Assembly (NCBI RefSeq): GCF_026586665.1
Contig: NZ_JAODIY010000009.1
Span: forward strand, 62,001-126,000
DNA: 64,000 bases
Direction: 5' to 3'
DNA from: Halovenus rubra
GTDB lineage: Archaea; Halobacteriota; Halobacteria; Halobacteriales; Haloarculaceae
Shown piece by piece: positions 21,769 through 25,868 of the stretch. The position numbers were made by a program, and so were the translations under genes. The notes below the pieces were generated by a model that was not told the origin of the DNA, did no database searches, and worked only from the letters and a program-made list of their open reading frames with translations. Position 1 is the stretch's first letter, and every line of letters starts with the position of its first letter.

Positions 21769-22659
21769 TTACCTTCGGCGCACCTCGTGCCGACCGAAAC
21801 CGTACCGAAGCCGGTTTGCCAACCGCCGTGAGAACCGCTCGTTGCGGCTTCCGAACCGTTCCGAGAGCGCCGCGTAGATGAGCGGCAACGGGACTTCCTG
21901 TTCGAGTGCCTCCTGGACGGTCCACGTGCCTGTCGACCCGCCAGCGACGTAATCGGCAACGTTTCCCAGATCAGATCCTTCCTCGTTAAAGGCTTCCTCA
22001 CAGAGTTCGAGCAGCCATGACCGGATGACTGCACCGTTGTTCCAGGTACTTGCGACTGCTTCGAGGTTGAGGTCGTACCGACCCTCGTGGAGTAGCTCGA
22101 ACCCTTCACCGTATGCCTGCATCAAAGCGTATTCGACACCGTTGTGGACCATTTTGACGTAGTGCCCCGAACCGCTGTTGCCCATTCGGTTGTGTCCTTT
22201 TGGCCCAGTCGCCACAGCGTCGAATACGGGTTCGAGTTCCTCGTAGGCCCATTCAGGGCCGCCAACCATCAGTGAAAACCCCAACTCCGCACCCGCTGGG
22301 CCACCACTTGTGCCACAGTCGAGGTACGCTGCAGCCGTACGCTCCGACCGACAGACGGTGTCTTCGAAATGTGAGTTCCCGCCATCGACCACAATATCGT
22401 GCTCAGTAAGCGATGGTTCAAGTTCATCTAGTGCTGCGTCGATAGCATCTCCTGCAGGCACCATCAACCAAATGCGTTTTTCGGAGCCAAGTACTGACGT
22501 GAGATCATCGATTGAGTCAGTACCCCTGGCCCCTGCAGCGACTGCGCTTTCGACAGCCTCCTCATCCACGTCGAATGCGACAACGTCGTGACCGGCCGCC
22601 AACGTCCTGTCGACGACAATCTGTCCCATACGGCCGAGTCCAATGACTCCGAGTTCCAT
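21769..22659 (-). CDS. gnd: 6-phosphogluconate dehydrogenase, decarboxylating (short type)
   Basis: 296 residues, the short ~300-residue class found in haloarchaea and some bacteria. The Rossmann motif GLGRMG is at residues 7-12 and VDGGNSHFED near 90. The substrate-site signature is LDCGTSGGPAGAELGFSLMVGG, with the catalytic Lys and Asn in HYVKMVHNGVEYALMQAYGEG. It oxidises 6-phosphogluconate to ribulose 5-phosphate and CO2, the route to pentoses in haloarchaea. The start ATG is preceded by a 303-base spacer with a G-rich minisatellite. Confidence 0.93.
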   Translation of the reverse strand: MELGVIGLGRMGQIVVDRTLAAGHDVVAFDVDEEAVESAVAAGARGTDSIDDLTSVLGSEKRIWLMVPAGDAIDAALDELEPSLTEHDIVVDGGNSHFEDTVCRSERTAAAYLDCGTSGGPAGAELGFSLMVGGPEWAYEELEPVFDAVATGPKGHNRMGNSGSGHYVKMVHNGVEYALMQAYGEGFELLHEGRYDLNLEAVASTWNNGAVIRSWLLELCEEAFNEEGSDLGNVADYVAGGSTGTWTVQEALEQEVPLPLIYAALSERFGSRNERFSRRLANRLRYGFGRHEVRRR

Positions 22660-22962
22660 ACCAGACTCTCACCGGCCGGGAAAGTAGTGGTTGTGATTTT
22701 CCCCGTTCGGCAGTATGAGTAAAAAAGAGCCGTAATAGTTGTTATTTGCTCTCTGAAAGAGCGTTGAAAGATGTGGTGGGGAAAGAGGGGGAAAGGGGAA
22801 AGAGGGGGGAAGGGGAAAGAGGGGGGAAGGGGAAAGAGGGGGGAAGGGGGTAAGTGGCACCCAAATTGGGTGCACACGGATATTGCGATTATACTCATAT
22901 GTACTTTCTGGTTTAACTTTCTCAAAAGTGAAAATATCAACCACTGAGAGCTGGAACGATAC
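22660..22962. other. Spacer between ydbT-like gene and gnd
   Basis: No gene is seen. The open frames across the minisatellite consist of proline/leucine/phenylalanine repeats from the pyrimidine tract and are not credible. Around the array the DNA is AT-rich (gataatactcatatgtac-like text near 22890), where a gnd promoter on the - strand would be expected. Confidence 0.6.
22778..22850 (+). repeat. 17-bp G-rich tandem repeat (4.3 copies)
   Basis: Four 17-base units start at 22778, 22795, 22812 and 22829. The consensus is ggggaaagaggggggaa; the first has one g-to-a change. A partial ggggg closes the array. The + strand has eight G runs of 4-6 bases, a G-quadruplex-capable arrangement, and the - strand (sense for both flanking genes) is pure pyrimidine. 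It lies in the spacer between the PH-domain operon and gnd, so it would be transcribed as a C/U tract if the operon reads through. Confidence 0.95.
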
Positions 22963-24450
22963 TCAGTCAGCCGCTTCAAATCGTCGGATCCGCTGTGTTC
23001 GACGCTCACGCAGGGACCACTGGAATCGATTGTGAACTGTTTCTCGTAGTTGGCGGGCTTCATCAATATCAATATCGAGAGCAACCGCATTCCCGCCCCA
23101 GAATCCGCCCGAGCTAGCTGTATCGACAACAAGCGTTCCAAGCTGCCGACGGCGCTGGAATACTGTCTGTGTCTCTGAGACGGTCTGAACTCGATAGTAC
23201 GGAACGATAGTCGTCTGCCGTGTCCAGAACCCGGACCGGGTAACCACGTAGCCTTCGTCGTAGTAGTACCCAAGGTGGGTCCACTTGAGATGTGCTGCCA
23301 ACGGAACGAGGGCCCAACTGAGTGCCCCCAAATACCAGTCATTGAGTGTCCCGGTCGTTGTATTGATTCCTGCAAGGAGTGCAACAAGAACAGCAACAAC
23401 AATAGTGTATCGCCCAACATACCGAAGGCGTGCACGTTTTGGTGGTCGCGTGAATTCCACTTCGCCAACGGATTCAACAGTTCGGGCGAGGTCGAATAGC
23501 CGATCCCGCTTCGCGATCGGAATTGCAGATTCGACACTGTTCCCGTCCTGTCCTGGAGCATACCCTGCCGTCTCGATTGCGAGGTTCCCGTAGCCCACAG
23601 CTCGGGCAATGAAATTCTCCCGGATCATCACAGTCTGGATTTTTGACAACGGAATTGTCCCGTTGTACTGCTGGAGGAGCCCACGCTGATACCGAAGTTC
23701 ACCTTCATGCCGAACCAGCCTGAACCCATAGTATCTGAGGATTGCTTGGATACCGCTTACAATCCAGAGCAATACCAGCGCTAGCGCGGCGAGTGCTGGC
23801 CCAAGCAACAATAACACGGACAGTCGCGGAGACACCTGTTCGGCAGCAACCGGTGTCCCGAGAACCGCAAACATGACAAGTATCAGTCCGAGAAGATTGA
23901 AGTTTGCCGAGGTAAGGCCAAGCACTGCCAACTCGTTACTATCAAGCTCAAACAACGTATTATCAGGCACCTCAGTGTCTCGTTGGCTTTCACCGTGTTT
24001 TCGGTCACTAACTAGTTCCTGTAAGCGGGTCGCTTCGGCTCTACTGACGTACTGGAGGACAGCTTCACTTTCCCCACCCCCAGCAGTCTCTAGACGCACC
24101 TCGGCAATCCCAAGGGCACGCTGAAAGACGTTCTGTGCGACATCGATGTTCTGGATTCGCTTGAAGGGAATTTCGCGTTCGCGGCGAGAAAAGACACCAG
24201 AGTAGATCTCAAACGTATCTGGTGTAATGCGGTACTCATACCGTTTCACGTACGTCATCTCCCAAAGTGCAACAGCAACTAGCCCGAACAGGATGAACCC
24301 TCCAAGCACAAGTGGTTCAAGCCCTGTACTTTCTGTACCTCCCTGGCTTCCATCTCCTGTCGAAAAGACTACTGAGACGATAACAATACCCGCGATACGG
24401 GATACGTTTTCGAAGATTCGATACGGAACCGACCGATAATCAAGATTCAT
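22963..24450 (-). CDS. PH-domain (bPH2) membrane protein, YdbT-like
   Basis: 495 residues. Three bPH2 (DUF304-type) domains alternate with paired membrane segments. The first domain contains YRITPDTFEIYSGVFSRREREIPFKRIQNIDV; the second FRLVRHEGELRYQRGLLQQ and PLSKIQTVMIRENF; the third YVVTRSGFWTRQTTIVPYYRVQTVSETQ. The repeated 'R-x-x-x-I-P-x-x-R-I-Q' line is the family hallmark. It pairs with the shorter YdbS-like gene 12 bases upstream, as in bacterial ydbS-ydbT operons. It is membrane-bound; its biochemical role is not established. Confidence 0.88.
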   Translation of the reverse strand: MNLDYRSVPYRIFENVSRIAGIVIVSVVFSTGDGSQGGTESTGLEPLVLGGFILFGLVAVALWEMTYVKRYEYRITPDTFEIYSGVFSRREREIPFKRIQNIDVAQNVFQRALGIAEVRLETAGGGESEAVLQYVSRAEATRLQELVSDRKHGESQRDTEVPDNTLFELDSNELAVLGLTSANFNLLGLILVMFAVLGTPVAAEQVSPRLSVLLLLGPALAALALVLLWIVSGIQAILRYYGFRLVRHEGELRYQRGLLQQYNGTIPLSKIQTVMIRENFIARAVGYGNLAIETAGYAPGQDGNSVESAIPIAKRDRLFDLARTVESVGEVEFTRPPKRARLRYVGRYTIVVAVLVALLAGINTTTGTLNDWYLGALSWALVPLAAHLKWTHLGYYYDEGYVVTRSGFWTRQTTIVPYYRVQTVSETQTVFQRRRQLGTLVVDTASSGGFWGGNAVALDIDIDEARQLRETVHNRFQWSLRERRTQRIRRFEAAD

Positions 24451-24462
24451 CGCAGATCACCT

Positions 24463-25308
24463 CTACAGAGCGTCGTCTCCTTTCGCCTCAATTGCTAGTT
24501 CTTTGACGCGGCGTTGTAGGTCACGGGCGTCTTGCGGTCGAAGACCGGGGATCGAGATGTCCGCACCCCTCGAACCGGCAGTGTACACGACGAGCGTCGA
24601 GAGTCCAAGCATACGCTCAACTGGACTTCTGCTCGTGTCGACGTGCTGAATACGGACGTAGGGCACGAGTGTTCTGGCATGTGTCACAACACCGCGTTCA
24701 AGATAGATTGCGTCAGTCCGTATCTGGTAGACCCACCGCCGATAGTGCAGTATTACCCAGATTAGTCCGGCGAAGAGCAATACGCCAACGACACCAGCAC
24801 CCCATTGAGAGGTAAATCCCTGCGTTCTAAGCCCCCATGTGACGACAAGTCCAAAAACAAGTGCGCTGACAGTGACACGGATGGCCCACCGTATCTGGAC
24901 CAGCGGATTGAGTGACCGTCGGTCAGTCAGATACTCCTGACGGGGACCGGATGGTAGCCCCTCTACTGACGTTTCGTCCGGTTGGAACTGACCTAAATCG
25001 ACCCACGGACCATCATTTTGTTCTCTGTCGGCGATAGTAACTTTGCTAGCTCCAGTCTCTTCTTGCTCTTGGTGATGTCTTGTAGCCCGATGGGTATCAT
25101 CGTCTCGCTGTGTCGGTTGTGCCCCACCACTGTGTTCCGTTTTGTCCACAGTTGCGTCAGGATGCTCCCCCAGCACTGGAGACCGTGATTCGGTGTCTCC
25201 AGACCCAGACTCTTGTGAGCCATAACCGGATTTCACACTCCGATTGTGACCGGTGGCTCGCTCATCTTTTGTCTGGTTGTCGTCGCGCTGGTCACGTCCC
25301 TCCGTCAT
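24463..25308 (-). CDS. PH-domain (bPH2) membrane protein, YdbS-like
   Basis: 281 residues with an unusually long hydrophilic N-terminus: about 130 residues rich in Asp, Glu, Gln, Thr and His. Two membrane helices follow (residues ~150-195), then one bPH2 domain: YQIRTDAIYLERGVVTHARTLVPYVRIQHVDTS and GLSTLVVYTAGSRGADISIPGL. Family members are usually ~160 residues, so the N-terminal tail is an addition or the real start is downstream. It is the first gene of the ydbS-ydbT pair, divergent from the PadR regulator. Confidence 0.85.
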   Translation of the reverse strand: MTEGRDQRDDNQTKDERATGHNRSVKSGYGSQESGSGDTESRSPVLGEHPDATVDKTEHSGGAQPTQRDDDTHRATRHHQEQEETGASKVTIADREQNDGPWVDLGQFQPDETSVEGLPSGPRQEYLTDRRSLNPLVQIRWAIRVTVSALVFGLVVTWGLRTQGFTSQWGAGVVGVLLFAGLIWVILHYRRWVYQIRTDAIYLERGVVTHARTLVPYVRIQHVDTSRSPVERMLGLSTLVVYTAGSRGADISIPGLRPQDARDLQRRVKELAIEAKGDDAL

Positions 25309-25442
25309 TACCGTATCTCAGGCTGGTATCTTGTTAAGTCCCAGGGTCACGGACAGTTGGTTGTCTGGCTGTCTCTGTTCAGTCATTTTTTATATCGCCA
25401 GTACAACCACAAACATAAATAAAATAGAACGTTCATATAGTC

Positions 25443-25480
25443 GATTTATAGATAAATCATGCTTGATTTATCCTAAATCA
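25443..25480. promoter_or_regulatory. Interleaved palindromes, candidate operator
   Basis: Three overlapping perfect inverted repeats share half-sites: gatttat-ag-ataaatc (25443-25458), gataaatca-tgct-tgatttatc (25451-25472) and tgattta-tcc-taaatca (25464-25480). This gives four alternating TGATTTA-like half-sites. They sit in the divergent spacer between ydbS and padR. Such a layout suggests cooperative dimer binding, plausibly by the adjacent PadR protein, or a supercoil-extruded cruciform. Confidence 0.55.
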
Positions 25481-25592
25481 TAACTAAAATACATGCCTGA
25501 TACCAGAACGGAGAAGCGTCAATTTTTGCAATGCGAGTAACCGATAGACAACTTTAATATATGTCGGTAATATCTGTTAACTGTACGAATAC

Positions 25593-25868
25593 ATGTACGA
25601 CTTGACGGGATTCCAGCGAGACTTGCTGTACGTCGTTGGTGGTAAAGAAGAGCCACACGGTTTGGCAATCAAAGAAGAACTTGAACAGTACTACGAATCG
25701 GAGATACACCATGGTCGGTTGTACCCGAACCTAGACACCCTTGTTGATAAAGGACTCATTGAGAAAGGACAGCGTGATCGCCGGACAAACACATACATTC
25801 TCACGAGACGGGGACACCGTGAAATTGAAGCACGCGACGAGTGGGAACAACAGTACGTCGAAAAGTAG
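25593..25868 (+). CDS. PadR-family transcriptional regulator
   Basis: 91 residues, the size of minimal archaeal PadR proteins. It has a winged helix: LTGFQRDLLYVVGGKEEPHGLAIKEELEQYY, the recognition region EIHHGRLYPNLDTLVDKGLIEKG and the wing RDRRTNTYILTRRGHREI. It probably dimerises and represses nearby genes. An ATTTA-rich set of palindromes lies about 115-150 bases upstream, and a TATA-like ttaatata lies near 25554-25561, about 32 bases before the ATG. Confidence 0.9.
   Translation: MYDLTGFQRDLLYVVGGKEEPHGLAIKEELEQYYESEIHHGRLYPNLDTLVDKGLIEKGQRDRRTNTYILTRRGHREIEARDEWEQQYVEK

What the first reader, a model, noticed from the sequence alone, without database searches (positions are those of the whole stretch)
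25443..25480. Four alternating TGATTTA half-sites form interleaved palindromes
Seen: three perfect inverted repeats share arms in 38 bases between divergent ydbS and padR. Interleaving makes alternative hairpins or overlapping dimer sites possible. PadR autoregulation is the simplest idea, but PadR sites usually have other consensus forms.
Basis: partly seen in the sequence, partly recalled or inferred. Interest (0 to 1): 0.55.

Follow-up and report, generated by a model that had tools for sequence, protein, structure and literature searches.

The report
Duplicated palindromic site between divergent genes
In a salt-loving archaeon, a short mirror-image DNA site between two oppositely oriented genes, one of them for a PadR regulator, occurs as two copies side by side where two relatives have one; it is most likely an ordinary binding site for an unidentified regulator.

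Summary
The array is real, with one correction. The half-sites are CGATTTA (25442-25448), TAAATCA (25453-25459), TGATTTA (25464-25470) and TAAATCA (25474-25480), so the first begins with C. They lie 10-11 bp apart in alternating orientation. None of 20,000 shuffles of the spacer gave such a four-member chain. The exact pairs occur nowhere else in the 3.57 Mb genome.

Two Halovenus relatives with the same divergent ydbS/padR pair carry one unit at the same place, 128 bp before padR (129 in the window; 21 of 28 bases invariant; 0 of 1000 shuffles). A third relative, G108, lacks it. Left flank plus copy 1, and copy 2 plus right flank, each align to the relatives' single site. The four half-sites are therefore best read as two tandem copies, two helical turns apart, of one roughly 18-bp near-palindrome.

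Most likely it is a dimer operator of an unidentified regulator, upstream of both core promoters. PadR (RosR-like) autoregulation is not supported: close homologues share its presumed recognition helix but lack such sites. A long hairpin is predicted only in the window. Binding is untested.

The parts
25442..25459 (.). copy 1 of the unit: CGATTTATAGATAAATCA, near-palindrome (half-sites 1 and 2)
   Evidence: with its left flank aligns to the relatives' single site
25464..25480 (.). copy 2 of the unit: TGATTTATCCTAAATCA, near-palindrome (half-sites 3 and 4), one base shorter than copy 1
   Evidence: conserved position 128-129 bp before padR in two relatives
25464..25491 (+). 28-bp conserved block (TGATTTRTCNATAATTAYAACTWAAATA in two relatives), 21 of 28 invariant in three species
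25432..25441 (+). left flank TTCATATAGT, matching the left flank of the relatives' single site
25438..25484 (.). whole array as one larger imperfect palindrome (TAGT...ACTA outside), predicted hairpin in the window only
25547..25580 (+). probable padR core promoter (GACAACTTTAATATATGTCGGTAATATCTGTTAA), strongly conserved in the four syntenic genomes
   Evidence: the promoter role is inferred
25331..25346 (-). probable ydbS core promoter (TTGTTAAGTCCCAGGG on the + strand), conserved in three species
   Evidence: the promoter role is inferred
25593..25868 (+). padR: RosR-like PadR-family winged-helix regulator, 91 aa
   Evidence: Pfam PF03551 2.4e-16; PDB hsRosR 6qfd 5e-25
24463..25308 (-). ydbS-like bPH_2 protein, divergent from padR

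Best explanation
The array is a protein-binding site: two tandem copies, two helical turns apart, of one near-palindromic operator with half-site about TGATTTAT. It lies in the divergent ydbS/padR control region, about 70-110 bp upstream of the padR TATA-like box and about 95-135 bp upstream of the probable ydbS core promoter. One dimer of a regulator (probably a winged-helix or Lrp-type protein, not identified) would bind each copy, and two dimers could sit side by side on one face of the DNA. From this distance it more likely acts as an upstream activating or cooperative site than as a promoter-blocking repressor site. Shown: the repeats, their rarity, the single conserved copy in two relatives and the flank pattern of a tandem duplication. 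Inferred: that a protein binds, which one, and the effect on transcription. Whether the window's lineage gained a copy or the other two lost one is not settled.
For: The four-member chain is beyond chance (0 of 20,000 shuffles, twice). The 28-bp block sits 129, 128 and 128 bp before padR in the window, G100 (H. salina) and G098 (H. aranensis), with 22 and 23 of 28 identities to the window; 0 of 1000 shuffles each reached that. It was found in 3 of 18 genus genomes and only at this locus. Left flank + copy 1 and copy 2 + right flank both align to the same single site in each relative. The spacer is 284 bp against 261 and 260, about one unit longer. Half-sites are 10-11 bp apart.
Against: The syntenic relative G108 (L116) shows no recognisable unit (15 of 28, 640 of 1000 shuffles as good). 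The relatives' single sites are poor palindromes (5 and 6 of 9 pairs, against 7 of 9 for each window copy in the same count), so what is conserved is partly asymmetric and runs into AACTAAAATA. No second convincing site exists in the genome, so no regulon supports it. The three sequences are few and AT-rich. No binding data.
Confidence: 0.55

Rival explanations
1. PadR autoregulation: the RosR-like PadR encoded next door binds the TGATTTA sites as dimers and controls its own gene and ydbS.
For: Adjacent divergent regulator gene; PadR family and RosR-like; the site is kept beside this padR in two relatives. L104, another close padR, has GATTTATCTTTAAATC just before its start codon.
Against: Close homologues (presumed recognition helix IHHGRLYPNLDTLVDKGL in 90 of 105) lack the site: 7 of 103 upstream stretches hold any hexamer, 11.4 expected. 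Many homologues instead share a repeat-like CGACA block around the TATA box (56 of 104 with a pattern I wrote after seeing the sequences). Published RosR motifs are TCG/CGA-based (passages of PMC4287449 and PMC3443676). The array lies far from the padR core promoter.
Confidence: 0.18
2. A neutral accident: a chance palindrome in an AT-rich spacer was duplicated by slippage, with no binding protein; the conserved block is an unrelated AT-rich element or shared ancestry.
For: Single hexamer palindromes turn up in 28-50% of shuffles, and one duplication would make four half-sites. G108 lacks the unit. The hairpin is not conserved.
Against: The best-matching 28-mer of the middle spacer falls on this block in all three pairs of the three species, at a fixed distance from padR, with 0 of 1000 shuffles as good, while its neighbourhood has diverged.
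Confidence: 0.22
3. An Lrp/AsnC-type regulator like Haloferax CsmR binds the central pair AATCA-TGCT-TGATT.
For: CsmR's published consensus is TATCA(N4)TGATA (passages of PMC13286277); 25455-25468 differs from it at 2 of 10 positions.
Against: The central pair exists only because of the second copy and is absent in the relatives. The window has 26 such two-mismatch matches (11.6 expected), so this one is not distinctive. No csmR orthologue was sought.
Confidence: 0.08
4. A nucleic-acid hairpin or cruciform is the functional form.
For: Window RNA fold -14.3 and -16.3 kcal/mol on the two strands, 0 of 200 shuffles as low.
Against: The relatives' corresponding stretches fold at -2.4 and 0.0 kcal/mol. 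The array lies upstream of both probable core promoters. No Rfam family reached its gathering score at 25200-25700.
Confidence: 0.05

Closest known systems
Dimeric winged-helix/HTH operators in divergent control regions (general kind, recalled)
   Same: Near-palindromic half-sites one helical turn apart, upstream of divergent genes, adjacent sites two turns apart
   Different: No regulator known; repeats only at this locus; duplicated here and single in two relatives
RosR operator of Halobacterium salinarum
   Same: The neighbouring PadR is RosR-like; RosR sites are described as imperfect ~20-bp palindromes (PMC4287449)
   Different: RosR motif is TCGnCGACGAGnTCGnCGAC, on average 18 bp from the start codon; this site is TGATTTA-based and 113-151 bp from the padR start
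CsmR (Lrp/AsnC-like) motif of Haloferax volcanii
   Same: Central pair AATCA-N4-TGATT resembles TATCA-N4-TGATA
   Different: 2 mismatches, not conserved in relatives, not adjacent to a TATA box

Membership tests
RosR-type operator | consensus TCGnCGACGAGnTCGnCGAC / TCGnCGA | tested here: not met
   No TCGnCGA in 25432-25491 on reading; motif from passages of PMC4287449 and PMC3443676
PadR autoregulatory operator | site found in promoters of close PadR homologues with the same recognition helix | tested here: not met
   7 of 103 upstream stretches hold any hexamer half-site, 11.4 expected; paired sites only in the window and L104; helix identical in 90 of 105
PadR autoregulatory operator | binding by the encoded PadR | not testable with these tools
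   needs gel shift or ChIP
CsmR/Lrp-type site | TATCA(N4)TGATA next to a TATA box, conserved | tested here: inconclusive
   2 mismatches at 25455-25468; absent from relatives
Dimeric operator (general) | symmetric half-sites about one helical turn apart | tested here: met
   starts at 25442, 25453, 25464, 25474
Dimeric operator (general) | conserved at the same place in relatives | tested here: met
   2 of 3 syntenic relatives; G108 not
Structured RNA or hairpin element | fold kept in relatives | tested here: not met
   -14.3 (window) against -2.4 and 0.0 kcal/mol in the two relatives with the single site

The most novel reading that the evidence does not exclude
A recent tandem gain of an operator copy, placed two helical turns away, changed a single weak upstream site (as in H. 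salina and H. aranensis) into a cooperative four-half-site array in this species, rewiring the divergent ydbS/padR pair by an unidentified haloarchaeal regulator with a TGATTTA half-site.
Probability: 0.2. Interest if true: 0.4.

Novelty: new member of a known kind. Interest (0 to 1): 0.22.

Why it matters
If true, this would be a small, directly testable example of an operator gaining a copy in phase between close haloarchaeal species, and it would lead to a regulator with a TGATTTA half-site. It is otherwise ordinary regulatory DNA.

Tried and rejected
Regulon search: the exact pair patterns occur only here in the genome. The consensus palindrome with up to 2 mismatches found one other place in the own genome and one in G100; the first lies in a spacer with no PadR- or PH-like gene recognised by eye, the second just before an unrelated helix-turn-helix-like ORF. 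Not taken as regulon members.

Similarity search of 111 bp of the spacer in 18 genomes gave nothing but itself above noise; the relatives' block was found only by alignment and pattern.

Halophage PadR relatives: the best phages are under 60% identical. The phiH region was fetched, but its matching gene is not the site of interest here and its DNA was not read for operators. A review's passages on phiH and phiCh1 repressors were read for operator details and gave none usable (PMC4284463).

Rfam: only a sub-threshold match, Hrs13, 15.9 bits against 52 needed. Rejected.

Slips: a first pattern for the padR core block matched 0 of 111 because it was wrongly written and was rewritten after looking at the sequences. 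The half-site count used only 97 bp by mistake and was replaced. Seven of the 111 upstream stretches were dropped as repeats of the same 100 bp, and one more as shorter than 200 bp.

Full report
What is there. The sequence reads CGATTTA TAGA TAAATCA TGCT TGATTTA TCC TAAATCA from 25442 to 25480. The finder confirms three perfect inverted repeats that share arms. The first half-site is CGATTTA, so the title's four TGATTTA is three plus one variant. Half-site starts are 25442, 25453, 25464 and 25474, that is 11, 11 and 10 bp apart, alternating in strand.

Chance. In 20,000 dinucleotide shuffles of the 284-bp spacer and 20,000 of a 100-bp local stretch, none had four alternating hexamer half-sites with gaps up to 8; 50 and 54 had at least three; 9,958 and 5,611 had at least two. 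GATTTA-N4-TAAATC, TAAATCA-N3/4-TGATTTA and TGATTTA-N3/4-TAAATCA each occur without mismatch at one place in the 3.57 Mb genome.

Surroundings. The window lies in a haloarchaeon. Its closest named padR loci are Halovenus salina (L034) and H. aranensis (L035), at 92% and 91% protein identity, the same places as G100 and G098 of the window's genus (coordinates agree). padR matches Pfam PadR, and ydbS and ydbT match bPH_2. PadR is nearest among solved structures to hsRosR of Halobacterium salinarum (E 5e-25, residues 3-84; the species name of hsRosR is from the papers).

Synteny. Of 18 genus genomes, 15 gave a strong ydbS match with fetched flanks; padR lies divergently beside it in 4 of those 15 (window, G098, G100, G108). 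Flanks were 1,500 bases and some contigs end early, and the three genomes with only weak matches (G104, G106, G107) were not examined, so 4 is a lower bound.

Footprint. H. salina and H. aranensis hold one unit where the window holds two. Their shared block TGATTTRTCNATAATTAYAACTWAAATA starts 128 bp before padR, and the window's copy 2 starts at 129. 21 of 28 bases are invariant in the three. In each of the three pairwise comparisons the best 28-mer of the middle spacer falls on this block, and 0 of 1000 shuffles did as well. G108 shows nothing comparable (640, 231 and 96 of 1000 shuffles as good against the window, L034 and L035). The pattern with up to 3 mismatches was found in 3 of 18 genomes, once each, only here.

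Duplication. The window's left flank plus copy 1 (TTCATATAGTCGATTTATAGATAA) aligns to the relatives' left flank plus site. Its copy 2 plus right flank (TGATTTATCCTAAATCATAACTAAAATA) aligns to the same site plus right flank. The spacer is 284 bp against 261 and 260. This is the pattern of a tandem duplication in the window's lineage, or of a loss in the others; the direction is not shown. A tandem repeat of a palindrome creates the third, central palindrome by itself, which explains the interleaving.

Which protein. The neighbouring PadR is the obvious candidate but a weak one. Its presumed recognition helix (role recalled from the family, not tested) IHHGRLYPNLDTLVDKGL is the same in 90 of 105 homologous loci, some of which are one gene fetched by two searches. 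Yet only 7 of 103 distinct upstream stretches, the window included, hold any hexamer half-site within 220 bp, where base-shuffled stretches give 11.4, and only the window and L104 hold a pair. By contrast 56 of 104 share a CGACA-like repeat around the TATA box (pattern written). The window's own core promoter does not fit that pattern by eye, but it is nearly invariant among the four syntenic genomes. RosR motifs in print are TCG/CGA-based (passages of PMC4287449; passages of PMC3443676). The Lrp-like CsmR motif TATCA(N4)TGATA (passages of PMC13286277) resembles the central pair at 8 of 10 positions, but that pair is absent in the relatives.

Hairpin. The window stretch folds well as RNA (-14.3 and -16.3 kcal/mol, 0 of 200 shuffles each), but the relatives' single sites do not (-2.4 and 0.0; G108 -6.4). 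The array is upstream of both probable core promoters (inferred), so a transcript through it is not expected.

Conclusion. The best reading is a tandemly duplicated dimer operator of an unidentified regulator in a divergent control region: a new instance of a familiar kind of feature. Six paper searches were made. Their listings showed no title about this locus; I make no wider claim about print.

Noticed in passing
L104 (MAG Natrialbaceae), about 17-32 bp before padR: The upstream end of this padR carries AACAGATTTATCTTTAAATCTG, a palindrome with the same hexamer half-sites, close to the start codon.
   Followed up: partly
upstream of RosR-like padR genes in many loci (e.g. L007, L016, L049): A repeat-like block, roughly CGACATATTTAT...TCCGACAGTAA, surrounds the TATA box in 56 of 104 distinct upstream stretches; it may be the real autoregulatory site of this family.
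   Followed up: partly
window, 26 places: Matches to the CsmR-like pattern TATCA-N4-TGATA with up to 2 mismatches number 26 against 11.6 expected (0 of 100 shuffles as many); possibly a codon effect.
   Followed up: no
L156 (G100), 1501-1518: A TGAATTATCTATAATTCA palindrome lies just before a helix-turn-helix-like ORF.
   Followed up: partly
window 22600-23100: Spurious minus-strand ORFs show repeated proline-rich strings (PPFPLPPLSPFPLF), suggesting a simple-sequence tract downstream of ydbT.
   Followed up: no
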